This document shows positions 1 to 31,385 of a stretch of 64,000 bases of DNA, one piece after another; position 1 is the stretch's first letter, and every line of letters starts with the position of its first letter. The DNA is taken from NCBI GenBank assembly GCA_016793465.1, contig JAEUJW010000039.1, positions 372,001 through 436,000 on the forward strand, read 5' to 3'. The notes beneath the pieces were generated by a model. The model was not told where the DNA came from. It ran no database searches and saw nothing but the letters and a program-made list of their open reading frames with translations. This DNA comes from Myxococcales bacterium (GTDB lineage: Bacteria; Myxococcota; Polyangia; Nannocystales; Nannocystaceae). Both the position numbers and the translations under genes were made by a program.

Positions 1-345
1 GGTGAACGACTTGGCGATCAGCGCGCGCAGCCGGGTGTGCTCCGGGGGGTCCATGAAGGAGATCCAGCGCCCGATGAACTCGTTGCAGACCTTCAGCTTG
101 TCGCGCACGTGCTCGGGGGCGCCGGCGCCGTACTGCTCGACGCGGGCCGCCGTGAACTTGCCCCCGGTGTCGCGCACCACCTTCGTGACGTCGGCGTAAC
201 GCGTGAGCACCCAGGAGCGCAGGAGCGGGTGCCAGTACACGGGGTCCTCGGCCCGCATCCGATCGAGCGTGGGGTACGGATCGGCGAAGAACGCCGGGCT
301 GAGGATGTCGTACTTGATTTCAGGCAGTGAACCCTGGTCGTGCAT
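1..345 (-). CDS. Cytochrome P450, N-terminal part (runs off left edge)
   Basis: The minus strand reads an open frame of 115 codons from ATG at 345 to the window edge, without a stop. It begins MHDQGSLPEIKYDIL and contains PAFFADPYPTLDRMRAEDPVYWH and, near its end, the stretch MDPPEHTRLRALIAKSFT. The DPPEHTRLR motif belongs to the N-terminal half of bacterial class I P450s, just before the I-helix region. The oxygen-binding I-helix and the haem Cys loop lie outside the window and cannot be checked. A GGGAG Shine-Dalgarno sits about ten bases before the ATG. The gene is divergent from the multi-kinase at 747. Given the NRPS-PKS 7 kb away, it could tailor that product, but this is inference from proximity only. 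Confidence 0.85.
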   Translation of the reverse strand, partial: MHDQGSLPEIKYDILSPAFFADPYPTLDRMRAEDPVYWHPLLRSWVLTRYADVTKVVRDTGGKFTAARVEQYGAGAPEHVRDKLKVCNEFIGRWISFMDPPEHTRLRALIAKSFT

Positions 346-746
346 CGAACGCTTGCTCCCGTGGTGAACTCGTCGACGCGACGCAGGTGCCACGCCGACG
401 GACCGCTGCACGCTGACTGTACAACGCTTGCCGGCGCAGGGGAAAGCCTGCTCGGAGCGCGGGGGTCGGTCTGCGTCTGACCGTGGCCCTTCGATCGGAA
501 GATCCGTGGTCAGGCTCTGCGAACGTCACCCGAACTCGCGACGCGCGGGCGGTGCGAATCCGCGACGCCGCGTCCGCGGCGGTGGTCGGCCGACACGTCG
601 ATCGTGGGCCCTGTTCGCCGCGGCGACGCGGCGCATGAACGCCCGCGCCGCCGATCGAACTCGCGCGCACGCAGGGCTCTTCCGCGGGCGGGATGCGGCG
701 GTATGATGCGCAAACCTCTCGGGTCGACGCGCCGGGCGCTCAGCAC
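346..746. other. Divergent intergenic region, P450 / multi-kinase
   Basis: No credible gene lies here; the open frames on both strands are arginine-rich products of high GC. The region should hold the promoters of both flanking genes. A TATGAT hexamer at 702-707 faces the kinase. On the minus strand a weaker TACAGT (421 to 416) faces the P450, about 70 nt before its start. Confidence 0.6.
702..707 (+). promoter_or_regulatory. Probable -10 box (TATGAT) of the multi-kinase gene
   Basis: TATGAT is a near-consensus -10 hexamer in otherwise GC-rich DNA. No good -35 is visible. If transcription starts near 714, the upstream in-frame ATG at 693 would not be transcribed. This supports the ATG at 747 as the true start. 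Confidence 0.45.
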
Positions 747-3700
747 ATGGACGGATCGACAACCTACACGCTGAACGTGAAGATCCACGAGGGTCAGAAC
801 TCGCTGATCTTCCGGGCCATCCGTGATCACGATCAGGTCCCGGTCGTCATCAAGTTCCTGAAGGGCGAGTACCCCTCGCCGCGGGCGTTCGCCCAGCTCC
901 GCCGCGAGTACACCACGCTGCACGACCTCAACCTGCCCGGGGTCATCCGCGTCTACTCGCTCGAGAACTACGGCAACGGGCTCGCGCTGGTGATGGAGGA
1001 CGGCGGCGGCGTGCCGCTCAGCGACATCCTGCACGGCCAGCCGCTGCGCCTGCGCCGGGCCCTCGAGATCGCCCTGTCCCTGGCCCGCACGCTGGCGGCG
1101 CTGCACCAGCGAAACATCGTCCACAAGGACATCAAGCCGCACAACATCCTCGTCAACCCGGCCACCGAGGAGACCACGCTCATCGACTTCGGCATCGCCA
1201 TGCGCATCGCCCAGGAGACGGCGCGCGTGGGCAGCCCCGAGGCGCTCGAGGGCACGCTGCTCTACATGTCGCCCGAGCAGAGCGGGCGCATGAACCGCGT
1301 CGTCGATCACCGCACAGACCTCTATTCGCTCGGCGTGACGTTCTACGAGATGCTGACCGGCAGCCTGCCGTTCGCCGGCAGCGACGCGATGGAGGTCGTG
1401 CACAGCCACATCGCCCGCACGCCGGTGGCGCCGCACCAGCGGGCCCCCTCGGTCCCGCCGGTCGTCTCGAACATCGTCATGCGCCTGCTCGCCAAGGGTC
1501 CGGAGGACCGCTACCAGCACGCGCGTGGCCTCGCCGCCGACCTCGTGACGTGCCTGCAGACGCTCGACGCCGAGGGCAACATCCCGACCTTCGAGCTCGG
1601 CAAGCGCGACCTGCCGGACGTGCTGCGCGTCCCGCAGAAGCTCTACGGCCGCGAGGACGACATCCAGGCGCTGATGGACAACTTCTCCCGCGTGCGGGAG
1701 GGGCGACCGGCACTGCTGCTGTTCTCCGGCGGCGCGGGCGTCGGCAAGTCGGTGCTGGTGCACGAGGTCCACAAGGCGATCGCCCGCAGCGGCGGCCGGT
1801 TCGTCGCCGGCAAGTTCGACCTGCTGCAGAGCGGCGCGCCGCTCAGCGCGCTCACGCGGGCGTTCGAGGAGCTGGTGCGCCAGATGCTCACCGAGTCGTC
1901 GGCCACGCTCGGCGAGTGGCGCACGCGCCTGCGGGCCGCGCTCGGGCCCAACGGTCAGCTCGTGGTCGACCTCGTGCCGGAGCTCGAGCGCATCATCGAT
2001 CGCCAGGAGGCGCCGGCCCAGCTCGGGCCCGCGGAGTCGCAGAACCGCTTCGGCCTGGTCTTCCAGAACTTCGTGCGGGCGTTCTGTACCAGCAGCTCGC
2101 CGCTCGTCGTCTTCCTCGATGACCTGCAGTGGGCCGACCCCGGCACGCTGGCCATGCTGCGCCTGCTGCTCACCGACCCCGGCGGTCGCAACCTGCTGCT
2201 CATCGGCGCGTTCCGCGATCAGGAGGTCGACGCCGGCCACCCGCTGCGGGCCACCATCGACTACCTGCGCGGCGAGGGCGTGCCGGTCGACGAGCGCCAG
2301 CTCGGGCCGCTCGACTGGGCGAGCGTGCAGCGGCTGCTGAGCGACACGCTGACGCCGTACGGCGAGCGCTCGCTCGACAACCTGACGGCGCTCGCGCACG
2401 ACAAGACCCACGGCAACCCGTTCTTCCTCACCCAGTTCCTGCTCACGCTGTATCAGCGCGGCCTCATCCGCCTCGATCAGGAGGAGGGCCAGTGGACGTG
2501 GGACGAGCAGGCGATCCGCGTCGAGCCGATCACCGATAACGTGGTCGAGTTCATGTCCGAGAAGCTGCGCCTGCTCGACGAGGGCACGCAGGTGCTGCTC
2601 GCGGTCGCGGCCTGCATCGGCCACGAGTTCGACCTGGTGACCCTGGCGACCATCTCGGACCGCACGCTCGGACAGCTCGCCTTCGATCTGTGGCCGGCGC
2701 TGCAGGCCGGGCTGGTCGTGCCGCTCGACTCGGACTACCGGCTCCTGCCCGGCGGCGACGCCTCGCCCGAGGGCGAGCACGACGAGGTGTCGGACCTCGC
2801 GCCGATGTGCCGGTTCCTCCACGACCGCGTGCAGCAGGCGGCGCTCAGCCTCGGCGGCGATCAGGACCTCGCCGAGGTCCACCTCCGCATCGGCCGCACC
2901 CTGCGCGCCCGCGTCGGCCGCGAGCCCCAGGGCGAGGCGCTGTTCGAGATGGTCCGCCACTTCAACTCCGGCGCCAGCCGCATGGAGGACCCGGTCGAGC
3001 GCATCGAGCTCGCGCGGGCCAACCTCGCCGCCGGTCGCGCGGCCAAGACCGCGTCGGCCCACAGCGCCGCCTCGCAGTACCTCACCGCCGGCATCGCCAT
3101 GCTGCCGGCCTCCTGCTGGGACGACGAGTTCGACCTGACGTTCGTGCTGGAGCGCGAGCTGGCCGAGTGCGAGTTCATGGCCGGTCGCAGCGAGCAGGCC
3201 GACACGGTGTTCGAGCTGCTGTTCACGCGGGCCCGCAACGACCTCACGCGCATCGACCTCTACCGCCTGCGCATGCTGCTCCGCGGCGGCCAGGGCAACT
3301 TCGCCGGGGCGCTGGCCGACGGCCGCCAGGGCCTGGCGCTGTTCGGCATCCACCTGCCCGACTCCCCCGCGGAGCTGATGGCGGCGATCGGCGCGTCGTC
3401 GCAGGCGATCGACGAGCACCTGAAGACCCGCACGATCGAGTCGCTGGTCGACCTCCCGGTCATGACCGACGAGGCGGCGCGCGCCCAGCTGCGCCTGCTC
3501 ACCGACGTGTTCATGCCGGCGTTCGTGGCCAACGCGCTGCTCGGATCGGTCATCATCCTGAAGCAGGTCCTGCTGTCCCTGACCCACGGCAACGCCGAGC
3601 TGTCGGCCTTCGGCTACGCCAGCTACGGCTACGCGCTCGCGGGTCCGCTGCAGCGCCCGGAGGACGCGCGTCGGTTCGGCCAGCTCGCGCTCGGCGTGCT

Positions 3701-5981
3701 CGACCGCTTCCCGCAGTCGGAGGTCGCGTGCCGCGTGCAGTTCGCGGTCGGCTTCTACTTCGGCCAGACCCAGCCGCTGCAGACCACGCTGCACCACTAC
3801 GCCGAGGCCCAGCGGCTCGGCAGCGGCCTCGGCGAGTTCATGTGGGCCTCGCAGGGCGCCGTCTACTACACGCTGACGCAGCTGCGCCTCGGCGAGGACC
3901 TCGGGGCCGTGCGCGAGCGGGCGCTGCAGGCCCTCCCCGATCTGCGGCGCATGCGGGACTTCATGTCGCTGGCCCAGGCGACGCTGTTCGGCCACACGAT
4001 CGAGGCGCTGCTGCACCGCCAGTGGTGGGACGCGCCGCTGGGCGAGGACTCGCCGGAGGAGGCGGCCTGGCTCGCCAACATCGACGCGTTCGGCCTCGTC
4101 GTGGTGCGCTGCCTGCACCACATCGTCAAGCTGATGACGCTGGTGATCTTCGAGGAGTTCGAGCGGGCCCACGCCCTCATCCCGCAGATCGAGGCGGTGC
4201 TCGGCGCGACCGTCGGCGCGCCGTACGTCCACGAGTTCCCGTTCTACGCCGCGCTCACGCTGGCGGCGGTCTACCCGAGCGCGCCGGAGGCCAAGCAGGA
4301 GGCGATGCTCGCCGAGATCGTCCGCCACCGCGACGCGGTCGCCAAGTGGTCGGGTTATTGCCCGAGCAACGAGCTGCACCGCCTGATCCTGCTCGACGCC
4401 GAGATCCACCGCCTCCGCGGCGACGACATGAAGGCGATGGACGAGTTCGATCGGTCGATCGAGTACGCCCGCAAGAACATGTTCTTCCACCACGAGGCGC
4501 TGGCCAACGAGCTGTGCGCCCGCTTCCACCTCGGCCGCGGGCGCGGCCGCATCGCCCGCCTGTACCTCGGCCAGGCCCGCTTCGGCTACGAGCGCTGGGG
4601 CGCGCACGCCAAGGTCCGCGAGCTCGACGCCAAGTACCCGAACCTGATCGGCCGCAGCGAGCCGCTGACCCCGATCGCCGCGCCGACGCGGAGCTTCGCC
4701 ACCAGCTCGCTGTCCACCACCGGCAACCAGGGCATGGACCTGGCGAGCGTCATCAAGGCCTCGCAGGTGCTGACGGTCGAGATCTCGCTGCAGCCGCTGC
4801 TCGAGAAGATCGTGCACATCATGGTCGAGAACGCGGGGGCCCGCCGCGGCGTGCTGCTGCTCGACCAGGACGGCCGGCTGTGCGTGGTCGCCGAGTCGTC
4901 GGCCGACACCGGCCCGTTCACCCTGGCCTCGCCGCTGCCGCTGAAGGAGTCGCAGTCGCTGCCCGCGTCGGTGATCCACTTCGTCGCCCACACCAACGAC
5001 AGCGTGATCCTCGAGGACGCCGTCCACGTCGGGCCGTTCACCACCGACCCGGACATCGTGGCCCGCTCGCTGCGATCGGTGCTGTGCACCCCGCTGGTCC
5101 ACCAGGGCAAGCTGATCGGCGTCCTCTACCTCGAGCACGACCTGACGCCCGGGGTGTTCTCCGAGGGCCGCTTCAACACGCTCAAGCTGATCGCCTCGCA
5201 GGCCGCGATCTCGATCGAGAACGCCAACCTCTACGCCAACATGGAGGGCCTGGTCCGCAAGCGCACCGACGAGCTGAGCCGCGTGAACCAGTCGCTGATC
5301 GCCAGCAACGCCGAGCTCGACGCGTTCGGCCGGACCGTCGCCCACGACCTGAAGAACCCGCTCGGCGCGGTGTCCGGCTACGCGGAGTACCTGCTCGAGA
5401 GCCTCGACAACCTCGACCAGTCGGAGGTCGCCAAGGTCGTCGACAGCATCCGCCGGGCCTCGAACACGGCGGCCAGCATCGTCGACGAGCTGCTGCTGCT
5501 GGCCGGCGTGCGCAAGCAGCAGGTCCAGATCACCCCGCTCGACATGGCCAGCATCGTCGCCCAGGTCCAGCAGCGCATGGCCTACATGCTCGTCGAGTAC
5601 CGCGGCGAGATCACCGTCGCCGACGAGTGGCCGGCCGCGATCGGCTACGCCCCGTGGATCGAGGAGGCGTGGACCAACTACATCAGCAACGGGCTGAAGT
5701 ACGGCGGACGGCCGCCGCGCCTGACGCTCGGCGCCGACGCGCGGGCCGACGGGATGCTGCGCTTCTGGGTGCGTGACAACGGCCCCGGCATCCCGCGCGA
5801 GGCCCAGGACCGCCTGTTCGCCGAGTTCACGCGGCTGGACGAGGTCCGCGCGGAGGGCCACGGCCTCGGCCTGTCGATCGTGCGACGGATCATCGAGCGC
5901 CTCGGCGGACGCGTCGGCGTGGAGAGCGTGCCCGGCGAGGGCAGCCTGTTCTACTTCACGCTGTTGCCGCCGAAGTCCTGA
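747..5981 (+). CDS. Trifunctional Ser/Thr kinase / AAA ATPase / GAF sensor histidine kinase
   Basis: This 1744-residue cytoplasmic protein combines two kinase types. Residues about 1-270 are a Hanks-type kinase with catalytic Lys36, catalytic loop HKDIKPHN (H126, D128) and D147 of DFG. HKD in place of HRD is common in this fused family. Residues about 295-620 are a STAND/AAA_16-like ATPase with Walker A (K334) and Walker B VVFLDD (454-459). A long helical, TPR-like region of roughly 700 residues follows. A GAF domain lies near residues 1340-1490, then a HisKA helix with H1533 in AHDLKNPL, then a HATPase_c domain with N-box NYISNGLKYGG, DNGPGI and GHGLGLS (G1704). No receiver domain follows, so an external response regulator is likely. 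Start 747 is preferred over 693 because of the -10 box at 702. The input signal is unknown. Confidence 0.93.
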   Translation: MDGSTTYTLNVKIHEGQNSLIFRAIRDHDQVPVVIKFLKGEYPSPRAFAQLRREYTTLHDLNLPGVIRVYSLENYGNGLALVMEDGGGVPLSDILHGQPLRLRRALEIALSLARTLAALHQRNIVHKDIKPHNILVNPATEETTLIDFGIAMRIAQETARVGSPEALEGTLLYMSPEQSGRMNRVVDHRTDLYSLGVTFYEMLTGSLPFAGSDAMEVVHSHIARTPVAPHQRAPSVPPVVSNIVMRLLAKGPEDRYQHARGLAADLVTCLQTLDAEGNIPTFELGKRDLPDVLRVPQKLYGREDDIQALMDNFSRVREGRPALLLFSGGAGVGKSVLVHEVHKAIARSGGRFVAGKFDLLQSGAPLSALTRAFEELVRQMLTESSATLGEWRTRLRAALGPNGQLVVDLVPELERIIDRQEAPAQLGPAESQNRFGLVFQNFVRAFCTSSSPLVVFLDDLQWADPGTLAMLRLLLTDPGGRNLLLIGAFRDQEVDAGHPLRATIDYLRGEGVPVDERQLGPLDWASVQRLLSDTLTPYGERSLDNLTALAHDKTHGNPFFLTQFLLTLYQRGLIRLDQEEGQWTWDEQAIRVEPITDNVVEFMSEKLRLLDEGTQVLLAVAACIGHEFDLVTLATISDRTLGQLAFDLWPALQAGLVVPLDSDYRLLPGGDASPEGEHDEVSDLAPMCRFLHDRVQQAALSLGGDQDLAEVHLRIGRTLRARVGREPQGEALFEMVRHFNSGASRMEDPVERIELARANLAAGRAAKTASAHSAASQYLTAGIAMLPASCWDDEFDLTFVLERELAECEFMAGRSEQADTVFELLFTRARNDLTRIDLYRLRMLLRGGQGNFAGALADGRQGLALFGIHLPDSPAELMAAIGASSQAIDEHLKTRTIESLVDLPVMTDEAARAQLRLLTDVFMPAFVANALLGSVIILKQVLLSLTHGNAELSAFGYASYGYALAGPLQRPEDARRFGQLALGVLDRFPQSEVACRVQFAVGFYFGQTQPLQTTLHHYAEAQRLGSGLGEFMWASQGAVYYTLTQLRLGEDLGAVRERALQALPDLRRMRDFMSLAQATLFGHTIEALLHRQWWDAPLGEDSPEEAAWLANIDAFGLVVVRCLHHIVKLMTLVIFEEFERAHALIPQIEAVLGATVGAPYVHEFPFYAALTLAAVYPSAPEAKQEAMLAEIVRHRDAVAKWSGYCPSNELHRLILLDAEIHRLRGDDMKAMDEFDRSIEYARKNMFFHHEALANELCARFHLGRGRGRIARLYLGQARFGYERWGAHAKVRELDAKYPNLIGRSEPLTPIAAPTRSFATSSLSTTGNQGMDLASVIKASQVLTVEISLQPLLEKIVHIMVENAGARRGVLLLDQDGRLCVVAESSADTGPFTLASPLPLKESQSLPASVIHFVAHTNDSVILEDAVHVGPFTTDPDIVARSLRSVLCTPLVHQGKLIGVLYLEHDLTPGVFSEGRFNTLKLIASQAAISIENANLYANMEGLVRKRTDELSRVNQSLIASNAELDAFGRTVAHDLKNPLGAVSGYAEYLLESLDNLDQSEVAKVVDSIRRASNTAASIVDELLLLAGVRKQQVQITPLDMASIVAQVQQRMAYMLVEYRGEITVADEWPAAIGYAPWIEEAWTNYISNGLKYGGRPPRLTLGADARADGMLRFWVRDNGPGIPREAQDRLFAEFTRLDEVRAEGHGLGLSIVRRIIERLGGRVGVESVPGEGSLFYFTLLPPKS

Positions 5982-6043
5982 CGCGAAAAACTCGTGGAAA
6001 CGATCGCGGCCGCGAACTACTGTAGTGCTCTCTGGAGGTGCGG

Positions 6044-7285
6044 ATGAATCCCGAGATCTATGCGATCGGCGAACTCCCCCCGCTGGGGGTCGTCCCGCGG
6101 AGAATGCACGCACAGGTGATCCGCGAGGAGCGCTTCGGACCGCCCGCGAGCGCCTTCATGGTCGAGGAGGTCGACGTCCCGGAGATCGGGGACGACGAGT
6201 GTCTGGTCGCGGTGATGGCCGCGGGCATCAACTACAACGGGATCTGGGCGTCCGCGGGCGCGCCGGTCAACGTGATTCGCCTGCACCGCAAGCTCGGTGA
6301 GGGGGACTTTCACATCGGCGGCTCGGACGGCTCCGGCATCGTCTACAAGGTCGGCCGCGACGTGCACGACGTCGCCGTCGGCGACGCGGTGATCATGCAC
6401 GGCGGCTGGTGGGATCGAAGCTGTCCGCACATCCGCGCCGGCGGCGACCCGATGCTCTCGCCGACGTGCAAGATGTGGGGGTACGAGACCAGCTACGGGT
6501 CGTTCGCGCAGTTCACCCGGGTCAAGCGCGATCAGGTGATCGCCAAGCCGCCGGCGCTGACGTGGGAGGAGGGCGCGGCGTTCCTCGGCAACGGCGCGGC
6601 GGCCTATCGCGGGATGCACGGCTTCGCCGAGCACACCGTGCGCGCCGGCGACGTCGTGCTGGTGTGGGGCGGCGCGGGCGGCCTCGGCTCGCTGGCCATC
6701 CAGGTCGCCAGGGCGGCGGGCGCCATCCCCATCGGCGTGGTGTCCGACGCGCAGAAGGCCGAGTACTGCCTGGCGCACGGGGCCAAGGGGGTCATCGATC
6801 GCACGCGCTTCGATCACTGGGGGACGATGCCTCGCTGGGACGACACGGCCGCGTATGCGCGCTGGAACGCGGGCGCCCGCGCGTTCGGCGAGGCGATCTG
6901 GGAGGCCGTCGGGGCCCGGCGCAATCCTCGTATCGTATTCGAACACCCGGGCGAGGCGACCCTGCCGACGTCGCTGTATGTGTGTGACACCGGCGGCATG
7001 GTGGTGATCTGCGCCGGCACCACCGGCTATCAGGTCACCTTCGACCTGCGCTACCACTGGATGCGGCAGAAGCGGTTTCAGGGCACCCACTACGCCAACC
7101 GCGAGCAGGCCGTCGCCATGACCGAGCTCGTCGGCAGCGGGCGCGTCGACCCGTGCCTCGGCAGGACGTTCGAATTCACGGCCATCGGGGCCGCGCACCA
7201 GCTCATGGCCGATCGCAAGGCGCCGCACGGCAATATGGTGGCACTCGTCGGCGCGCGCGAGCCGGGCGGCGGACGCCGCGCCTGA
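6044..7285 (+). CDS. ccr: Crotonyl-CoA carboxylase/reductase
   Basis: The protein has 413 residues and belongs to the MDR superfamily branch that reductively carboxylates enoyl-CoA with NADPH and CO2. Crotonyl-CoA gives ethylmalonyl-CoA; relatives take longer enoyl-CoAs. Family-specific stretches are AAGINYNGIW (59-68), WGYETSYGSFAQF (145-157), the NADPH loop WGGAGGLGSLA (208-218), FEHPGEATLPTSLYVC (299-314) and RYHWMRQKRFQGTHYAN, with H349 at the CO2-binding His position. The Tyr147-Glu148 pair matches the second CO2-pocket site, where the characterised enzyme has Phe-Glu. GGAGG at 6034-6038 lies five bases before ATG 6044 and decides the start over the GTG at 6038. The gene lies 62 nt after the multi-kinase and converges on the NRPS-PKS with a 72-nt gap. 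This suggests it supplies the PKS extender, though a role in primary ethylmalonyl-CoA metabolism is not excluded. Confidence 0.92.
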   Translation: MNPEIYAIGELPPLGVVPRRMHAQVIREERFGPPASAFMVEEVDVPEIGDDECLVAVMAAGINYNGIWASAGAPVNVIRLHRKLGEGDFHIGGSDGSGIVYKVGRDVHDVAVGDAVIMHGGWWDRSCPHIRAGGDPMLSPTCKMWGYETSYGSFAQFTRVKRDQVIAKPPALTWEEGAAFLGNGAAAYRGMHGFAEHTVRAGDVVLVWGGAGGLGSLAIQVARAAGAIPIGVVSDAQKAEYCLAHGAKGVIDRTRFDHWGTMPRWDDTAAYARWNAGARAFGEAIWEAVGARRNPRIVFEHPGEATLPTSLYVCDTGGMVVICAGTTGYQVTFDLRYHWMRQKRFQGTHYANREQAVAMTELVGSGRVDPCLGRTFEFTAIGAAHQLMADRKAPHGNMVALVGAREPGGGRRA

Positions 7286-7357
7286 GCGACAGGTGTCGAC
7301 ATTCGCCGCCGACGCCGAGGGGCGACGACGGCGAGTGCGGGCGGCGGACGGCGGCGA

Positions 7358-17311
<9,954 letters not shown>

Positions 17312-17669
17312 GTGTTTTTGTCCGACATTGGTTCCGTGGGAGGGGCGAGTGCAAGCGAGGGCATATGTGTGCAATCGTCAGCGCTGCCCCGCGCGGAAAC
17401 GCAGGGAACGTCGTACGCCTGGCTTGGCGTGAATCATGAGTGTTGAGTGATGAGGAGTAGATCACACGATTCAGAAATTCGTAACAGCTGTCATGCTGGG
17501 GGCTGCGAGCGTCAGGTCGCACGGGGCACGAATCTTCTTGGAGACGCGGCGGCCCTTCGTGTACCCTCGCCGGTTCGATGCAGTCTACAGTATCGTTTGC
17601 AGAGCACGTGGTCGGTTCCGACGATCCGACGAAACCGTCGCGGTCTGACAGCCAGGATCGAACGGATAT
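17312..17669. other. Divergent regulatory region, NRPS-PKS / acyltransferase
   Basis: About 360 bp without a credible gene and clearly richer in A and T than its surroundings, for example around 17450-17510. It should carry both divergent promoters, but I cannot point to a convincing -35/-10 pair for either gene. No transcription-factor gene lies beside it. Confidence 0.5.
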
Positions 17670-18965
17670 ATGAAGACTGCGGTGACGCAACGAGAGCTCG
17701 GCTATACCGAGGCCGCGTGCGCCCTCGCCCATGAACGCTTCGCGGGGTGGGGCCAGCCGGTCCGGGCCGCCGAATTCATGGGCCCGCTGTCCGCCGAGAT
17801 CGTACGGCGCGTGCTCGGCGAAATGCAGGTTCGCCACCCGCTGCTGCGGGCGAGGCTGGTCGGGCACGACGCGGGCTATCGCTTCGTCATCGACTCGCCG
17901 CCGCTCGCCGTCCGCGTCCTCGCGCGCCCGGACTCGCCCTCGTATCACGCGCTCGAGGAGGCGGAGCACGCCGCGCCGATCGACCCGGCAGGTCCGCTAT
18001 GGCGGGCGACGGTGCTGCTGGACGGTGTTCCCGAACGTGGACGTCATGTCCTGATTTACAGCTCGCACCACGCGATCTCCGACGGGCTGTCCGCGTGCCG
18101 GTTCGTCGAAGAATTCCTGCGGGGCTGCGCCGCGGCCGCCGACGGCGTAGCGATCGAAGATTCGCCGCGTCCGCTGCCGCCGGCGATCGAGGAGCAGCTC
18201 CCGCGGTCACCGACGTGGGCGGAGTACGCGGCGACGCTGCAGCAGGCGGCCGCGGGACGTCCCGCGATGGACCCGTGGCCGTACGCGGAGGTTTCGCCGG
18301 TCGACGCGAGGATCCCCCGGGTCGTTCCATTCGCCGCGATCGCCGTCGGTCCGCTGCGGACGCGGGCGGCGCAGGCGGGCGTGTCGGTCAATGCGGCGCT
18401 CGCCGCGGCGATGTTGCAGACCGCCGCGGTCCTGGCCGGAGGTCGGCTGGCGACCACGTTCACCACGTCCGTGAATCTGCGCAGTCGGGTCGTACCGCCG
18501 CGCGCGCTGGCAGACGTGGATTGCTGTATGATCAACGTTCACACCGGGCACACGGTGGATCCGGACGTGCGGTTTTGGGCGCTGGCTCGGGCCTACGCCG
18601 ACGAATTGTCCGTTCAATTGCCCGGGCAATCGGCGACGCCCGCGGCGTTCGATTTCAATGCATTGAGCCAGCGAATCGACGCCGGAATGATGGCGCGAAT
18701 GACGGGGTTCCCACTGCGCCTCGGGCTCAGCAATTGTGGTTTGTACCCATTCCCGACGCGGCACGGGGCGTTCACGCTCGAGCGTTTGCACTTCCATACG
18801 TCGCGTCGTGCAGGCGCCTATGTCGGTTTTCTGCACGCGGTGACTGTGGGTGAGTCGCTCAACCTGTGCTTCAGCTACGCCGAGCCGCTGGTCGCGGGTG
18901 CGTGGGTGCAGGCGTTCGTCGCGGGTGTAGTGCAGGCCCTGGCGGGCGCGTCCGCGGGCGAGTGA
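17670..18965 (+). CDS. Stand-alone condensation-like acyltransferase (HHxxxDG)
   Basis: A 431-residue protein of the chloramphenicol-acetyltransferase/condensation fold, close in type to PapA-like and alcohol O-acetyltransferase enzymes. The catalytic motif is HHAISDG with H133, H134 and D138. The N-terminal half has QVRHPLLRARLV and the C-terminal half SVNAALAAAMLQTA and LSNCGLYP, all usual for this fold. It lacks a carrier domain. The ATG at 17670 has an AGGA 12 bases upstream. It is divergent from the NRPS-PKS and probably acylates its product on nitrogen or oxygen, or transfers the finished chain; this is inference from position. The second half of the gene uses many A/T-ending codons (around 18530-18780), unlike its neighbours, which suggests recent acquisition. 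Confidence 0.85.
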   Translation: MKTAVTQRELGYTEAACALAHERFAGWGQPVRAAEFMGPLSAEIVRRVLGEMQVRHPLLRARLVGHDAGYRFVIDSPPLAVRVLARPDSPSYHALEEAEHAAPIDPAGPLWRATVLLDGVPERGRHVLIYSSHHAISDGLSACRFVEEFLRGCAAAADGVAIEDSPRPLPPAIEEQLPRSPTWAEYAATLQQAAAGRPAMDPWPYAEVSPVDARIPRVVPFAAIAVGPLRTRAAQAGVSVNAALAAAMLQTAAVLAGGRLATTFTTSVNLRSRVVPPRALADVDCCMINVHTGHTVDPDVRFWALARAYADELSVQLPGQSATPAAFDFNALSQRIDAGMMARMTGFPLRLGLSNCGLYPFPTRHGAFTLERLHFHTSRRAGAYVGFLHAVTVGESLNLCFSYAEPLVAGAWVQAFVAGVVQALAGASAGE

Positions 18966-19237
18966 GGCGAAATCGGGCCGACGTTGCTCGCACAACAATT
19001 TGTGCGTCGGGCGACAGAACGATGTATGAGCCGCGTCAGTCGGGGTAGGACAGGTGGGTTCGGTGGAAACTGCAAATAAATTGTGTCGCTCCAGGATCCG
19101 TTCCTGATCTTCCGGACACTACAGAAACACCTCGTGCGGCGTTGTTGGGAATAGTGGCTCGGCGATTTGCCCGAGGTGCGAGGGACGAAACATCAGGCGT
19201 ATCGGCGGTGTCGCGCGGCCGATGGCGACGGGGGATT

Positions 19238-21970
19238 ATGCAAGCTCGTATCGCACAGGTGTTGCTGTCTACGGTGATCGGCTGGGCGGGGTTGGGGTGG
19301 AGCGAGGCTCAGGCGGCGCCGCCGGCCTACACCCTCTTCGAGAGCGGTCAGGTCCGTCCGCTGGCCATGTCCCCCGACAAGAAGCAGGTGTTCGCGGTCA
19401 ACACCCCGGACAATCGCCTCGAGGTCTACAACGTGACGTGGTCGGGCGGCCTGTCGCACAAGGCGTCGATCCCGGTGGGCGTCGAGCCGGTGTCGGTGGC
19501 GGTGCGCAGCGCGACCGAGGTGTGGGTCGTCAATCACCTGTCCGACAGCGTCAGCGTGGTCTACGTCGGCCCCGACGGCCCGGCCCGGGTCACGCGCACG
19601 CTGCTGGTCGGCGACGAGCCGCGGGACATCGTGTTCGCCGGCCCGCAGAAGCGCCGGGCGTTCATCACGACCGCGCACCGCGGGCAGAACAACGCCATCG
19701 ACCCGCAGCTCACGACCCCGGGCGTCGGTCGCTCGGACGTGTGGGTGTTCGACTCGCAGAACCTGGGCGCGACGCTCGGCGGCACGCCGCTGAAGATCGT
19801 GACCCTGTTCTCCGACACCCCGCGGGCGCTGGCCGCCAGCCCCGACGGCTCGAAGGTGTACGTCGCGGCCCACTTCTCGGGCAACAAGACCACCACGGTG
19901 CACCGCGTGTTCGTGTACGACGGCAGCGAGGACGAGATCGGGTCGCCGCCGCCGAACGTCGACCACGCCGGCCGCGCGCAGCCCGACGTCGGCATCATCG
20001 TGCGCCACGACGGCCAGCACTGGGTCGACGAGCTCGGCCGCGAGTGGGACGACAAGGTGCGCTTCAACCTGCCCGACAAGGACGTGTTCGTGATCGACGC
20101 CAACGCCAGCGTGCCGAAGCAGATCGCCGGCAGCGCGGGCTTCTACAGCGGCGTCGGCACCGTCCTCTACAACATGATCGTCAACCCGGTGAACCACAAG
20201 GTCTACGTGTCCAACACCGAGGCGCGCAACGAGGTCCGCTTCGAGGGCCCGGGCATCTTCGCCGACACCACCGTGCAGGGGCACTTCGTCGAGAACAAGA
20301 TCACCGTCATCAACCCGGCCAACGGCACCGTCGCGCCGCGCCACCTCAACCCGCACATCGACTTCGAGGACTGCTGCGCCGAGCTGCCGAACGAGGAGAA
20401 CGAGCTGAGCCTCGCGCTCCCGCAGGGCATGGAGATCACCAGCAACGGCGCGACGCTGTACGTGGCGGCGCTCGGCTCGGACAAGGTCGGCGTGTACTCG
20501 ACCGCCGAGCTCGAGAACGACATGTTCTGGCCCGACCCGTGCGATCACATCGAGCTCAGCGGCGGCGGTCCGACCGGCCTGCTGCTCAACGAGACCAAGA
20601 AGCGGCTGTACGTGATGACCCGCTTCGACAACGGCATCTCGGTGATCAACACCCAGACCCAGGACGAGGTCCAGCACGTCGAGATGTTCAACCCCGAGCC
20701 GGCGAGCGTGACCGAGGGCCGCCGCTTCCTCTACGACGCGCGCCTGACCTCGAGCCACGGCGACTCGGCCTGCGCGAGCTGCCACGTGTTCGGCGACATG
20801 GACCAACTCGCGTGGGACCTCGGCAACCCCGACGGCGACCAGCTCGCCGCGCCCGGCCCGTTCCTGACGTTCTTCGGCGCGGACATCGACTTTCACCCGA
20901 TGAAGGGCCCGATGACGACCCAGAGCCTGCGCGGCATGGCCAACCACGGGCCGATGCACTGGCGCGGCGACCGCAACGGCGGGCTCGACGAGCCGACGGC
21001 CCAGCCGGACAGCGGCACATACAACGAGAACGCGGCGTTCCTGAAGTTCAACGGGGCGTTCGTCGAGCTGCTCGGGCGCGACGAGGAGCTGCCGGCCGCC
21101 GACATGCAGGCGTTCGCCGACTTCGCGCTGCAGCTGACCTACCCGCCGAACCCGATCCGCGCCCTCGACAACTCGCTGACCCCGGACGAGGCGGCGGGCC
21201 GCGACCTGTTCCTCAACAAGCCGACCACGCTCGACTTCCCGGGCTGCGACACCTGTCACACGCTCGACCCCCAGGGCAACGCGCAGTACGGCGTGGTCCG
21301 GCCGGGGTTCTTCGGGACGAGCGGCGAGTACGTGGGCGCCGAGCTCGTGCAGACCCTGAAGGTCCCGCACCTTCGCAACATCTACCAGAAGGTCGGCAAG
21401 TTCGGCCTCCCGAGCGATCCGCTGATCAACCCCGAGCTGAGCGACGCGCACATGGGCGACCAGATCCGCGGGTTCGGCATGATCCACGACGGCGGCATCG
21501 ACACCGTGTTCCGCTTCATCAGCGCGATGGGCTTCACCCAGGGCCCGTTCGCCCCCAACGGGTTTAGCCACGACGAGGCGGGCCTCAACGAGCGGCGCCA
21601 GGTCGAGGCCTACGTGCTCGCGTTCGACACCAACATGGCCCCGATCGTCGGCCAGCAGATCACCGTCTCGACGGCCAACAAGAGCGTGACCACGCCGCGG
21701 GTCGAGCTGCTGAAGGCCCGCGCGGCCCTCGGCGAGTGCGACCTGGTGGTCCACGGCAACGTGGAGGGGGTCGACCGCGGGTACCTCTACATCAACGGCA
21801 AGTTCAAGGCCGACAAGGCCAACGAGGCCCCGAAGACGACGATCCCGCTGTCCCTGAACCGCGAGCTGACGTACACCTGCATGCCGCCCGGCTCGGGGGT
21901 CCGCGCCGGCCTCGACCGCGACCTCGACGGGGTCTACAACCGCGACGAGGACGACGGTCCCTGCAACTGA
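19238..21970 (+). CDS. Secreted di-haem cytochrome c with YVTN-type beta-propeller
   Basis: The 910-residue protein begins with a signal peptide (MQARIAQVLLSTVIGWAG, cleavage likely after EAQA). Residues about 30-500 show repeated strands such as VRPLAMSPDKKQVFAVN and RALAASPDGSKVYVAA, typical of seven-bladed YVTN propellers. Two c-type haem sites follow, CASCH (512-516) and CDTCH (670-674), with SLRGMANHGPMHWRGDRNG between them as in MauG/peroxidase-like di-haem proteins. The tail DRDLDGVYNRDEDD resembles a calcium-binding loop. Possible roles are periplasmic or outer-surface electron transfer or oxidation; the substrate is unknown. ATG 19238 was chosen because it starts the signal peptide and follows GGGGGA; an in-frame start at 19142 would bury it. 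Confidence 0.88.
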   Translation: MQARIAQVLLSTVIGWAGLGWSEAQAAPPAYTLFESGQVRPLAMSPDKKQVFAVNTPDNRLEVYNVTWSGGLSHKASIPVGVEPVSVAVRSATEVWVVNHLSDSVSVVYVGPDGPARVTRTLLVGDEPRDIVFAGPQKRRAFITTAHRGQNNAIDPQLTTPGVGRSDVWVFDSQNLGATLGGTPLKIVTLFSDTPRALAASPDGSKVYVAAHFSGNKTTTVHRVFVYDGSEDEIGSPPPNVDHAGRAQPDVGIIVRHDGQHWVDELGREWDDKVRFNLPDKDVFVIDANASVPKQIAGSAGFYSGVGTVLYNMIVNPVNHKVYVSNTEARNEVRFEGPGIFADTTVQGHFVENKITVINPANGTVAPRHLNPHIDFEDCCAELPNEENELSLALPQGMEITSNGATLYVAALGSDKVGVYSTAELENDMFWPDPCDHIELSGGGPTGLLLNETKKRLYVMTRFDNGISVINTQTQDEVQHVEMFNPEPASVTEGRRFLYDARLTSSHGDSACASCHVFGDMDQLAWDLGNPDGDQLAAPGPFLTFFGADIDFHPMKGPMTTQSLRGMANHGPMHWRGDRNGGLDEPTAQPDSGTYNENAAFLKFNGAFVELLGRDEELPAADMQAFADFALQLTYPPNPIRALDNSLTPDEAAGRDLFLNKPTTLDFPGCDTCHTLDPQGNAQYGVVRPGFFGTSGEYVGAELVQTLKVPHLRNIYQKVGKFGLPSDPLINPELSDAHMGDQIRGFGMIHDGGIDTVFRFISAMGFTQGPFAPNGFSHDEAGLNERRQVEAYVLAFDTNMAPIVGQQITVSTANKSVTTPRVELLKARAALGECDLVVHGNVEGVDRGYLYINGKFKADKANEAPKTTIPLSLNRELTYTCMPPGSGVRAGLDRDLDGVYNRDEDDGPCN

Positions 21971-28548: not shown

Positions 28549-29619
28549 CTACGCGGTCGAGCGCAGCGGCTCGGGCCTGGCGTGGGGGCGGCGCATGGCG
28601 ATCATGTCGGCGAGGAACTGCTCGAAGCGCACGCCGGCGGCGGCGAGGGCCTTGCGAAACCCGCTGCCCTCTGCGAGGTCCGGGTTGGCGTTGAGGTCGA
28701 GCACGTGGACGCGGCCGTCGGGGCCGACTCGCAGGTCGAAGCGGAAGTAGCCGGTGAGTCCGAGCGCGGTGGCGATGCGCCGGCAGATCGCGGTGATCTC
28801 GGCGCGCAGGCCGGGCGGGAGGTCGCGGACGATGCAGCTCGGCGTGGTGCGGTGCTCGGGCGAGGCCGCGTCCCACTTGGCGCGCCAGCCGACCACGCGC
28901 TGGCCGGGCGCGAGGTCGTGGGCGTAGACGATCTGGCCGGGCGGCAGCAGCACCGGCCCGTCGGGGCCGACGTAGATGCCGAGGTTGTACTCCGAGCCGT
29001 CGAGGAACGCCTCGACGAGCGCGGCCTGGCGGTGGGTGGTCCACACGCGGCGGCACACCGCCAGCGCGGCCTCGACGTCGCCGACCACCGACTCGCCGTC
29101 GATGCCGACGCCGGCGTCCTCGCGGCTCGGCTTGATGATGATCCGCCCGGCGCTGGCGAGCAGGCCGGCGAGGTCGCGGCGCAGCGGGTCCTCGGGGCGG
29201 CCGATGGCGGCGACGAACCCGTCGGGCGTGCGCACGCCGATGCGGCGCAGCAGGTTGCGCATCAGCGCCTTGTCCTGGGCCAGGGCGATCGTCACCGCGT
29301 CGGCGCCGCAGCAGGGGATGCCGAGCAGCTCGAGCGCGAGCACGAGGTGGGTGTCCCAGGCGGAGCGTCCGAGCATGCCCTCGCACAGGTTGAACACCAC
29401 GTCGGGGGCGAACGCGCGGACGGCCTGGAGCGCGGCGACCTGGTCGGCGCCGACGGGGATCGTCGCGCAGGTGTGGCCGCCGGCGAGGGCCGCGTGCACG
29501 TCGGACGCGGCGCTCGCGAGCGCAGGTTCGGGGTCGGGGTCGCCCGCCCCGTCGAGCTCGGCGAGCGGGATGTGCGGCTTGGCGGCGGCGTCGGCGTTGT
29601 AGGTGATGGCGATGCGCAT
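28549..29619 (-). CDS. ATP-grasp ligase, D-Ala-D-Ala ligase superfamily (second of a pair)
   Basis: A soluble 356-residue enzyme. DVVFNLCEGMLGRSAWDTH, LGIPCCGADAVTIALAQDK and IIIKPSREDAGVGI give the ATP-binding part, and VEAFLDGSEYNLGIY with LDLNANPDLAEGSGF the metal-binding part. These are hallmarks of the D-alanine-D-alanine ligase group, which couples ATP hydrolysis to amide bond formation through an acyl phosphate. It differs clearly from housekeeping Ddl and lies outside any cell-wall cluster, so the substrate is probably not D-Ala. It follows the related ligase at 29638 by 18 bp on the same strand. Confidence 0.85.
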   Translation of the reverse strand: MRIAITYNADAAAKPHIPLAELDGAGDPDPEPALASAASDVHAALAGGHTCATIPVGADQVAALQAVRAFAPDVVFNLCEGMLGRSAWDTHLVLALELLGIPCCGADAVTIALAQDKALMRNLLRRIGVRTPDGFVAAIGRPEDPLRRDLAGLLASAGRIIIKPSREDAGVGIDGESVVGDVEAALAVCRRVWTTHRQAALVEAFLDGSEYNLGIYVGPDGPVLLPPGQIVYAHDLAPGQRVVGWRAKWDAASPEHRTTPSCIVRDLPPGLRAEITAICRRIATALGLTGYFRFDLRVGPDGRVHVLDLNANPDLAEGSGFRKALAAAGVRFEQFLADMIAMRRPHARPEPLRSTA

Positions 29620-29637
29620 GGCGGGGTCTCGGTGCGG

Positions 29638-30690
29638 TCAGGCGACGGCGGCGGCGAGCGGCCGGTGGAGGGTGGAGGGGGCGTGGGACCAGCGCTCGGC
29701 GGCCGCGGCGAGGATGCGGCCGATGAGCTGCTCGTAGGTCCATCCGTGACCGCGAGACAGGATGACGAGGTCGCTCGACTGCGGGTTGAGGCCCGGCAGC
29801 GGGTTGACCTCGAGGAAGTTGGGGGCGCCGTCGCGGTCGCAGCGGATGTCGACGCGCGAGAGGTCGCGGCAGCCGAACGCGCGGTGGGTCGCGAGGGCGA
29901 GCGCGCGGACGGTGGCGAGCTCCGCCGGGGCGACGCCGAGGCGCAGCAGGTCGTCGGTCATGCGGTAGACCACGCGGTTGCGATAGTCGCGCTTGACCTC
30001 GAGCGAGTAGACGAAGTCGCCGCTGTCGTCGCGCGGCACGACCTGCATGACGCCGACGACCTCGGCGTCGGCGCCGTTGCCGATCACGCCGACGGTGTAC
30101 TCGGAGCCGGGCAGGTACTCCTCGATCAGCACCGACTGGCCGTAGTCGGCCTGCAGGCGGGCGATCAGGGCGCGCAGCTCGGCGAGGCCGCGGCACACCG
30201 AGGTGTCGCGGATGCCCATCGACGAGCCCTCGGCGACCGGCTTGGCGAACAGCGGGAAGCGCAGGCCGGCGACGAGGTCGTCGGTGAGCTCGTCGGCGGG
30301 GCCGACCAGCACGAACGGGGCGGTGGCGATGCCGTGGGCGGTGGCCACCAGCTTGGCCACGCCCTTGTCGAGCGCGAGCGCGAGCGTGACCGGATCGGAG
30401 CCGGTGTTGGGGATGCCCAGCATCTCGAGCATGGCCGGGACCTGCGACTCGCGGCCGCGGCCGCCGAGGCCCTCGGCGACGTTGAACACGCCGTCGAGGC
30501 GGCGCGGGCCGTCGAGCGCGTCGAGCAGGTTGGGGCCCCAGCCGAGGCGCTCGACCTGGTGGCCGTCGCGGTGCAGGGCGTCGGCGATGGCGTCGACGGT
30601 CTCGACCGAGTCGAACTCCTCGTAGCGGTCGATGGGGTCGTCGGGGGCGAGATCCGCGGGGCGGAGGTTGTAGGTCAGTCCGAGGCGCAT
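29638..30690 (-). CDS. ATP-grasp ligase, D-Ala-D-Ala ligase superfamily (first of a pair)
   Basis: A 350-residue paralogue of its neighbour. It has GVFNVAEGLGGRGRESQVP (67-85), LGIPNTGSDPVTLALALDK (91-109), FAKPVAEGSSMGI with K150, LIEEYLPGSEYTVGVIG and FLEVNPLPGLNPQSSDL. All ATP- and Mg-binding residues expected of the family are present. The ATG at 30690 opens MRLGLTYN, parallel to MRIAITYN in the next gene. Together they may make two successive peptide or amide bonds, or a heterodimer. No amino-acid racemase, peptide precursor or transporter gene is adjacent, so the substrate cannot be guessed. Confidence 0.85.
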   Translation of the reverse strand: MRLGLTYNLRPADLAPDDPIDRYEEFDSVETVDAIADALHRDGHQVERLGWGPNLLDALDGPRRLDGVFNVAEGLGGRGRESQVPAMLEMLGIPNTGSDPVTLALALDKGVAKLVATAHGIATAPFVLVGPADELTDDLVAGLRFPLFAKPVAEGSSMGIRDTSVCRGLAELRALIARLQADYGQSVLIEEYLPGSEYTVGVIGNGADAEVVGVMQVVPRDDSGDFVYSLEVKRDYRNRVVYRMTDDLLRLGVAPAELATVRALALATHRAFGCRDLSRVDIRCDRDGAPNFLEVNPLPGLNPQSSDLVILSRGHGWTYEQLIGRILAAAAERWSHAPSTLHRPLAAAVA

Positions 30691-31385
30691 GGGTGGGGCG
30701 GCAGTTCGTACGGCGGTGTCACGAGGACGCGATCGGGCCGATCGCGGCGAGGCCTGAGGCAGGCCGAGCACGTGCGCAGGGCCCGACCGGCGAGGGTCGG
30801 GTCCCGGCGAACCGGAGCGCGGGGCAGGCGACCAGGCCGGAGCCGTGGCGCCTGCACGCGGTTACGAAGCTGTCACGCCTGGCGGCGCGGGACGGGTCGC
30901 CGCGTCGGCGGGACCTGCGGGTTCGGACGCGCTGGAGACGACGCTCTGCGGATGGGGCGAGGTCAGCACGCCCGGCGCGGCAGAGTAGGGCAGGTGGGTT
31001 GAACTGGGAGGTTCCAACGCGAAGGGTCCGACGGTTCGCAACCATAGCGAGATCGGAGAAAAGGAAAAGAAAAATTAATGTGGCAGCCGACGCGCAAGTT
31101 GCCGGGGCCGCGACGCCCGCCGAGGTCGCGACGACCGGCGGTGACGTCGTGGCGGGGCCCGGCGCGTGCACGAGCGAACGACCGCGGTCGCCGCGGCCGA
31201 CGTCGGCGGTCGTCGCTAGCACGTGCGCCGCTCGGGAGACGTGTGGGGTGTGGCGGCCGCGTTCGCAGGCCGCACGCGCGGGCGAGCGGGGTTGCGCAGG
31301 AGGGCACGAGAGCCGCGAATTCTCGGCCAGGCCGGGCGGTGTCGCGGGCGCGGGGCATCGGTTAGACTGCGAGGCTGTGCTCGCG
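30691..31385. other. Long gene-free region with an A-rich patch
   Basis: About 700 bp between the divergent ATP-grasp gene and a lipoprotein gene. An AT-rich patch at 31056-31079 (GGAGAAAAGGAAAAG, then AAAAATTA) stands out sharply. It would give a fine Shine-Dalgarno for the ATG at 31078, but the 95-codon frame after it is so Arg-rich (GC artefact) that I do not call it. TAGACT at 31363-31368 may be the -10 box of the lipoprotein gene. Confidence 0.5.

What the first reader, a model, noticed from the sequence alone, without database searches (positions are those of the whole stretch)
1..18965. Compact NRPS-PKS locus with ccr, acyltransferase and P450
A P450, ccr, a three-module megasynthase and an HHxxxDG acyltransferase lie within 19 kb. 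The combination A-PCP / C-A(MT)-PCP / KS-AT-ACP / TE with a dedicated carboxylase/reductase and a free-standing acyltransferase matches no named pathway I can recall. The expected product is an N-acyl or free methylated dipeptide extended by an alkylated beta-keto unit.
Basis: partly seen in the sequence, partly recalled or inferred. Interest (0 to 1): 0.75.

Follow-up and report, generated by a model that had tools for sequence, protein, structure and literature searches.

The report
Pyrazinone gene cluster with own carboxylase
This stretch of bacterial DNA, related to that of the myxobacterium Nannocystis, most likely makes a small ring-shaped molecule of a kind described in 2024 (a pyrazinone), in a variant with its own enzyme for building a longer side chain and, as in the relatives examined, with one particular sensor protein beside it.

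Summary
The genes are there as described, but "no named pathway" is not right. The 10-kb synthase is one protein, A-PCP-C-A(nMT)-PCP-KS-AT-ACP-TE. This is the coralinone CorA architecture (Corallococcus), shown experimentally to make 5-alkylated pyrazinones; variants with nMT are already catalogued. The likely product is a cyclised N-methyl-5-alkylpyrazinone, not an N-acyl or linear dipeptide.

Comparison with relatives separates core from accessory genes. The kinase orthologue was found in 7 of 7 family genomes with a cor-like TE and 0 of 22 without. No Ccr was found in the six Nannocystis genomes. In G017 it sits in the same place as here, and both Ccrs belong to one well-supported clade, so it is probably a pathway gene supplying alkylmalonyl-CoA. 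The PapA5-like acyltransferase has no orthologue in 29 family genomes, and its role is the weakest point.

The result is a new variant of a known kind. Most interesting is that the kinase is a concrete candidate for the sensor of pyrazinone signals, whose receptor is reported as unknown. Chain length, amino acids and product are predictions.

The parts
7358..17311 (-). Single-protein NRPS-PKS synthase A-PCP-C-A(nMT)-PCP-KS-AT-ACP-TE (3317 aa from ATG 17311; open frame to 17374)
   Evidence: 57.8-59% to P0006/P0008, 56-60% to Nannocystis synthases, 41-45% to Corallococcus CorA-type proteins over both halves
6044..7285 (+). Crotonyl-CoA carboxylase/reductase-type enzyme, probable alkylmalonyl-CoA supplier
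   Evidence: TIGR01751 511 bits; 65% to the G017 Ccr in the same position; both in one clade, 100/100
693..5981 (+). Hybrid Ser/Thr kinase - AAA - GAF - histidine kinase, candidate sensor/regulator, co-directional with ccr (62 bp apart)
   Evidence: orthologue beside the synthase in 6 of 6 Nannocystis loci and in G017; 7/7 versus 0/22 co-occurrence
1..345 (-). Cytochrome P450, N-terminal ~115 aa only, cut by window start
   Evidence: 65-70% to P450 genes at the same place in 6 of 6 Nannocystis loci and G017
17670..18965 (+). PapA5-like acyltransferase (HHAISDG), divergent from the synthase; probable recent addition
   Evidence: PF16911, PDB PapA5-type 8s6l E=2.4e-19; four relatives, all unnamed proteins; 0/29 family genomes; third-position G+C 0.82 against 0.90-0.97 in the other four genes
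17312..17669 (.). Divergent intergenic region between synthase and acyltransferase, probable promoter region; no sigma-70 match

Best explanation
A cor-like (coralinone-type) pyrazinone cluster of a Nannocystaceae-type myxobacterium with its own extender-unit supply. Inferred steps: A1 loads a free amino acid on PCP1. C joins it to the second amino acid, N-methylated by the in-line nMT. KS-AT-ACP adds one alkylmalonyl unit made by the neighbouring Ccr. TE hydrolyses the dipeptidyl beta-keto acid, which decarboxylates. The free N-terminal amine closes onto the ketone, and oxidation gives an N1-methyl pyrazin-2-one whose C-5 alkyl is one carbon longer than the branch of the extender: methyl from malonyl- and ethyl from methylmalonyl-CoA were shown for CorA; propyl would follow from ethylmalonyl-CoA. 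The P450 then oxidises the product; the acyltransferase may esterify the new hydroxyl. The adjacent hybrid kinase probably regulates the cluster or senses its product.
For: Domain order and intact catalytic motifs. CorA chemistry was shown by expression and in vitro reconstitution in PMC10979478 (first part of the text and sections 7, 11, 12, 13, 34 read). Similarity over nearly the whole protein to Nannocystis and Corallococcus synthases of that design; 9-row clade with Nannocystis and G017 synthases, support 100/100. Ccr sits at the same place in G017 and falls in one 100/100 clade with the window's. A further clade member, P0138, is listed with a longest contig of 108,317 bases in the same source as the cor-like synthase P0017, so they are probably on one contig (inference). 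The AT motif lacks the Phe of malonyl-type motifs: window GAGH and G017 GAAH, against GFH in 10 of 10 Corallococcus rows; H278/F280 versus Y278/S280 as specificity residues is from PMC6164871 (passages). N-methylation of residue 2 removes the amide proton needed for tetramate closure (chemical inference).
Against: No product is known. AT motifs without Phe also occur in relatives with no Ccr (Nannocystis TASH), so the motif alone does not prove alkylmalonyl use. Ccr accompanies only 1 of the 7 family genomes with a cor-like TE. In the midpoint-rooted KS-AT tree the Corallococcus group shares a half with eight rows taken as outsiders, so KS-AT alone does not unite window and CorA. No corB-like protease motif was found in the window, but the scan also found none in the Corallococcus flanks, so it is uninformative.
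Confidence: 0.7

Rival explanations
1. The free-standing acyltransferase caps the N-terminal amine, so that the product is an N-acyl methylated dipeptidyl ketone or keto acid and no pyrazinone forms.
For: Acyltransferase divergently next to the synthase with intact HHAISDG; the synthase has no starter C domain of its own.
Against: Nearest solved relative is PapA5-type, whose acceptors are alcohols (recalled). No orthologue in 29 family genomes, including all seven with a cor-like TE. Relatives that carry an N-terminal C domain have no HHxxxDG in it: 5 of 5 Nannocystis synthases examined, the broken sixth left out, as if N-acylation is not part of this family's chemistry.
Confidence: 0.12
2. 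The synthase makes a tetramic acid or another lactam by attack of an amide nitrogen on the beta-keto thioester.
For: A gamma-amino-beta-keto thioester is a known tetramate precursor (recalled).
Against: Residue 2 nitrogen is predicted N-methylated (nMT motif EIGCGSG), so it has no proton for that closure; CorA with a TE of the same type gives pyrazinones (PMC10979478).
Confidence: 0.07
3. Ccr is a passenger of primary metabolism (ethylmalonyl-CoA pathway) and the synthase uses malonyl- or methylmalonyl-CoA.
For: No Ccr in the six Nannocystis genomes that carry the related synthase; position 350 (AntE numbering) is a bulky Tyr in the window enzyme, resembling the Phe of common types.
Against: Same gene order synthase-ccr-kinase-P450 in G017. 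Window and G017 enzymes form one clade with others, apart from the commoner types. In a 377-genome phylum sample 22 have a match at E<=1e-150, but only G017's is at 65% (others 54-60%), and of the other 21 genomes none has a cor-like TE at E<=1e-30 (one weak match at 2.5e-22 on another contig).
Confidence: 0.13

Closest known systems
Coralinone cluster, corA of Corallococcus exiguus SDU70 (PMC10979478)
   Same: One NRPS/PKS protein, two amino acids then one PKS round then TE, same domain order; CorA's PKS part accepts malonyl- and, in vitro, methylmalonyl-CoA.
   Different: Window adds an nMT, a Ccr, a P450, a PapA5-like acyltransferase and a hybrid kinase; no corB found (scan uninformative). 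AT motif GAGH instead of the GFH of Corallococcus CorA-type rows. A-domain anchors differ. CorA's own sequence was not identified here.
Cor-like synthases of Nannocystis (loci L001-L006) and G017
   Same: Same clade (100/100; five Nannocystis rows and G017), kinase and P450 at the same relative positions; G017 also has ccr.
   Different: Nannocystis has an extra N-terminal C domain without HHxxxDG, no nMT found and no ccr; G017 has no nMT found and carries a PhyH/EctD-like dioxygenase upstream of the synthase, the side on which the window has the acyltransferase.
Nannozinones (Nannocystis pusilla MNa10913)
   Same: Pyrazinones from Nannocystis; nannozinone B has a C-5 acetyl (PMC10979478), which an alkyl extender plus oxidation could give.
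   Different: No gene cluster assigned in what I read; structures not compared here; link is inference.
Antimycin AntE/AntD pair (PMC6117356, passages)
   Same: Ccr supplies varied alkylmalonyl-CoA to one PKS extension of an NRPS-PKS line.
   Different: Different assembly line and product; Ccr 52% identical; position 350 is Val in AntE, Tyr here and Gly in G017.
Phenylnannolone cluster of Nannocystis
   Same: Ethylmalonyl unit in a Nannocystis polyketide.
   Different: Proposed to use a butyryl-CoA carboxylase (Phn1) and not Ccr (PMC6163206, PMC5577590; passages).

Membership tests
cor-like 5-alkylpyrazinone NRPS/PKS | two A, at most one C, one KS, one AT, one TE on at most three adjacent genes (criteria of PMC10979478); order A-T-C-A-T-KS-AT-ACP-TE | tested here: met
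   one protein; nMT allowed as a variable domain
cor-like 5-alkylpyrazinone NRPS/PKS | homology over nearly the whole protein with myxobacterial cor-like synthases | tested here: met
   56-60% to Nannocystis, P0006 and P0008, 41-45% to Corallococcus rows over both halves; TE pattern scan of the genome collection: 24 of 28 confirmed loci are myxobacterial
cor-like 5-alkylpyrazinone NRPS/PKS | KS-AT domains of window and Corallococcus form one clade to the exclusion of other PKS modules | tested here: inconclusive
   midpoint-rooted tree puts the 8 outsider rows in the same half as the Corallococcus rows
cor-like 5-alkylpyrazinone NRPS/PKS | neighbouring corB DegP-type protease (seen especially in Corallococcus clusters) | tested here: inconclusive
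   motif scan found none in the window, but also none in the Corallococcus loci scanned
cor-like 5-alkylpyrazinone NRPS/PKS | makes a pyrazinone | not testable with these tools
   no metabolite data
crotonyl-CoA carboxylase/reductase | TIGR01751 above cut-off | tested here: met
   511 bits against 378.55
crotonyl-CoA carboxylase/reductase | CO2-pocket Asn, Glu and His (roles recalled) conserved | tested here: met
   Asn and His (NYN, GTH) align with the five PDB sequences shown and Glu (TWEE) with 9kva, 4gi2 and 3hzz; AntE reads SWAAAS there
PapA acyltransferases | PF16911 PapA_C above cut-off and HHxxxDG | tested here: met
   36.6 bits against 30; HHxxxDG invariant in the 5 aligned sequences, window included
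PapA5 proper (NCBIfam NF006787) | score above curated cut-off | tested here: not met
   54.2 bits against 396; so PapA5-like only

The most novel reading that the evidence does not exclude
Synthase and hybrid kinase are a maker-sensor pair: in Nannocystaceae the kinase next to the synthase is the receptor, or the regulator reading the product, of a pyrazinone signalling circuit. Swapping of accessory genes (ccr, acyltransferase, dioxygenase) changes the signal's side chains between lineages, giving private dialects.
Probability: 0.2. Interest if true: 0.75.

Novelty: new variant of a known kind. Interest (0 to 1): 0.52.

Why it matters
It puts an unassigned cluster into a recently proven family with a testable product. 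It shows which neighbours are core (kinase, P450), which accompanies the synthase in part of the clade (ccr) and which is so far lineage-specific (acyltransferase). A Ccr coupled to a pyrazinone synthase would widen the C-5 side chain beyond the methyl and ethyl shown for CorA. The coralinone authors call its receptor hard to identify (PMC10979478, Discussion); a kinase orthologue that was found in 7 of 7 family genomes with a cor-like TE and in none of the 22 others searched is a specific gene to delete and assay. The words kinase, P450 and carboxylase do not occur in that paper's main text (supplements not read).

Tried and rejected
Rejected: 'no named pathway' (CorA matches). Rejected: a chain-length prediction for the window's Ccr from one residue. 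Position 350 is Tyr here, Gly in G017, Val in AntE and Phe in the rows outside the window's clade, except Gly in PDB entry 9kva; within that clade Tyr, Phe and Gly all occur, and the opposite pocket wall is changed too. The chain length is left open, with ethylmalonyl only as first guess. Rejected: naming amino acids from A codes. The anchor method (positions recalled from GrsA) gives DAHI--HVV for A1 (identical columns in window, P0006 and G017) and DIWV--GVF for A2, but the register at two positions depends on the alignment and no curated code table was used; His-Val-Val recalls proline codes (recalled only). Led nowhere: acyltransferase structure model, mean pLDDT 59.5 with five sequences, too weak for a fold search. 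corB motif scan was uninformative. A P450 co-occurrence profile was not obtained. Context of P0006, P0008, P0017, P0138 and the acyltransferase relatives could not be read (metagenome scans capped at 0).

Results against the reading, told above: ccr in 1 of 7 genomes with a cor-like TE; Phe-less AT motifs also without Ccr; KS-AT tree does not unite window with Corallococcus; L017, sister of L019, has no hybrid kinase match.
Full report
What is there. The left 19 kb of the window holds five genes: a P450 cut by the window edge (- strand, to 345), a 1762-aa Ser/Thr kinase-AAA-GAF-histidine kinase (693-5981, +), a Ccr (6044-7285, +), a 3317-aa NRPS-PKS synthase (17311-7358, -) and a PapA5-like acyltransferase (17670-18965, +). 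G+C at codon position 3 marks these frames as coding. The synthase reads A-PCP-C-A(nMT)-PCP-KS-AT-ACP-TE. Motif search finds both A-domain cores, three carrier serines, the KS Cys and His motifs, the AT and TE GHSxG serines and the SAM motif EIGCGSG; the C-domain motif is HHIAIDA.

What it works like. Two aminoacyl modules, one PKS extension and a TE on one protein is the design of CorA from Corallococcus exiguus. CorA alone, in E. coli BAP1 and in vitro, makes 5-methylpyrazinones. The proposed course is that the dipeptidyl beta-keto acid decarboxylates, the free amine closes on the ketone and oxidation follows; methylmalonyl-CoA gave the 5-ethyl compound (PMC10979478; first part of the text and sections 7, 11, 12, 13 and 34 read). 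The same paper lists 110 cor-like clusters, Nannocystis among the source genera, and a clade with embedded nMT, cMT and KR. The window's synthase meets its mining criteria. In a protein search with the AT-ACP-TE part (120 of 892 hits listed), closest rows by comparison of the whole proteins are P0006 (59%) and P0008 (57.8%), both from a metagenome source, and Nannocystis synthases (56-60% in two long pieces); Corallococcus proteins of CorA's size align at 41-45%. I did not confirm that any of the latter is CorA itself.

Family position. A pattern scan of the genome collection (84,980 species) with the ACP-TE alignment gave 28 confirmed loci, 24 of them myxobacterial. On KS-AT, the window, P0006, P0008, G017 and five Nannocystis rows form one clade (9 of 49 rows, support 100/100); G017 and the window are flagged as long branches. 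The same midpoint-rooted tree places eight rows taken as outsiders in the half that holds Corallococcus, so KS-AT does not by itself unite window and CorA. Domain order and TE similarity do.

Core and accessory genes. In L001-L006 (six Nannocystis genomes) the kinase orthologue lies downstream of the synthase on the opposite strand, followed by the P450: kinase 61-66% (6 of 6; split into two frames in L006), P450 65-70% (6 of 6; L003's P450 came from a further fetch). I compared the 33 other window ORFs chosen by the gene-finder script with the 55 loci held then. Besides kinase, P450 and ccr, only the gene at 19142-21970 had a close match at one of these loci (68%, L001). Three more gave 33-43% partial matches in upstream flanks, and the gene at 60386 matched the kinases. 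The block is therefore not part of widely conserved gene order. Seven have a cor-like TE at E<=1e-30: the six Nannocystis and G017. In each of these seven the best genome-wide match to the window's kinase is the copy beside the synthase (63-64% in five, 61% and 66% in two frames in G006, 53% in G017). In the 22 others no listed match exceeds 43%, and 9 have none at E<=1e-60 (only the best 16 or so candidates per genome were scored and the listing is cut). The kinase family is large: 7 to 17 such matches in 15 of the 29 genomes. Orthologue and paralogues had to be told apart by identity. As a control, the middle part (AAA and beyond), which marks the full hybrid architecture, matched 1 of 40 evenly spaced 20-kb regions of two Nannocystis genomes and 7 of 23 cor-like loci (the myxobacterial loci without the short L007), but six of those seven are one inherited event. 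The GAF-histidine kinase part matched 5 of 40 and 13 of 23, the Ser/Thr kinase part 10 of 40 and 8 of 23. Catalytic and GAF domains are more conserved than the middle part: 66-84% against 55-56% to five Nannocystis copies.

Ccr. The six Nannocystis genomes have no recognisable Ccr; their best match is a 31-32% dehydrogenase. Among 29 family genomes only G017 has one at E<=1e-35 (65%), and there the order is synthase, ccr (convergent), kinase, P450, as in the window. In a phylum sample of 377 genomes 22 have a match at E<=1e-150, G017's alone at 65%, the others at 54-60%; of those other 21 genomes none has a cor-like TE at E<=1e-30 (one match at 2.5e-22 on another contig). Window and G017 enzymes fall in a 29-row clade (100/100) made otherwise of unnamed proteins, mostly from metagenome sources. 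One of these, P0138, is listed with a longest contig of 108,317 bases from the same source as cor-like synthase P0017; I infer one contig, but could not read it. Ccr is thus most likely a pathway gene. Its product is less certain. The residue next to the conserved His that widens AntE when made small (V350; 4y1b carries Ala there; V350G in PMC6117356, passages) is Tyr in the window and Gly in G017, but the window clade also differs on the other pocket wall from the commoner enzymes. Ethylmalonyl-CoA, giving a 5-propyl group, is the first guess.

AT and A domains. The AT motif is GAGH in the window, GAAH in G017, TASH in five Nannocystis rows and GFH in the 10 Corallococcus rows. Loss of the Phe fits larger extenders (specificity residues from PMC6164871, passages), but it also occurs where no Ccr exists. 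A1 anchor residues are the same in window, P0006 and G017; substrates are not named.

Acyltransferase. It is a PapA5-like HHxxxDG enzyme. The protein search listed four relatives at E<=1e-10: P0122 (97%, presumably the same species) and three more distant unnamed proteins. Family genomes hold only condensation-domain-like partial matches (6 of 29 genomes, at most about half the length). With its lower third-position G+C it looks like a recent addition; O-acylation of a P450-made hydroxyl is a guess. G017 has a PhyH/EctD-like dioxygenase on the corresponding side (PF05721 above cut-off; the ectoine hydroxylase model below its cut-off).

Chemistry. N-acylation is unlikely as a family trait: N-terminal C domains of 5 of 5 Nannocystis synthases examined lack HHxxxDG, and the window has none. 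N-methylation of residue 2 argues against tetramate closure (inference).

Known or new. Searches for pyrazinone with myxobacteria and crotonyl-CoA carboxylase and with ethylmalonyl-CoA found 0 papers in the held library; crotonyl-CoA carboxylase with Nannocystis found 2. Those two state that phenylnannolone, an ethylmalonyl polyketide of Nannocystis, is proposed to use a butyryl-CoA carboxylase (passages), in line with the missing Ccr. Also seen: the commentary PMC10979472 (whole text) and passages of PMC6950740, PMC12144821, PMC12283262 and PMC4902002. I file the locus as a new variant of cor-like pyrazinone clusters. The kinase link is the part most worth following: the coralinone receptor is stated to be unidentified.

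Noticed in passing
window 19142-21970 and L001:20093-20836: Gene next to the acyltransferase (by eye a beta-propeller / di-haem cytochrome-like protein) has a 68% relative beside the P450 in N. exedens, i.e. on the other side of the block.
   Followed up: partly
L019:11691-17180: A second, distant cor-like synthase of Nannocystis sp. RBIL2 is followed in the same direction by its own 1829-aa hybrid kinase (35% to the window's); its sister locus L017 lacks it.
   Followed up: partly
L008:11013-13292 and L009:11014-13292: Cor-like synthases of a Myxococcaceae MAG and Hyalangium are followed by an apparent histidine kinase and a small receiver-like protein (receiver by eye).
   Followed up: no
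L010, L012, L014, L020 (Nannocystis): Another cor-like group whose second A domain anchors read DVQF--HVV, proline-like by recall; a possible source of nannozinones (link is a guess).
   Followed up: no
L054:8883-9866 (G017): PhyH/EctD-like dioxygenase directly upstream of the G017 synthase, suggesting exchange of tailoring enzymes around a fixed core.
   Followed up: partly
L006 (N. pusilla Na p29): Synthase and kinase are split over several frames, unlike in five other Nannocystis loci; sequencing error or decay not distinguished.
   Followed up: no
window 28549-30771: Two tandem ATP-grasp (D-Ala-D-Ala ligase-like, by eye) genes outside the finding.
   Followed up: no
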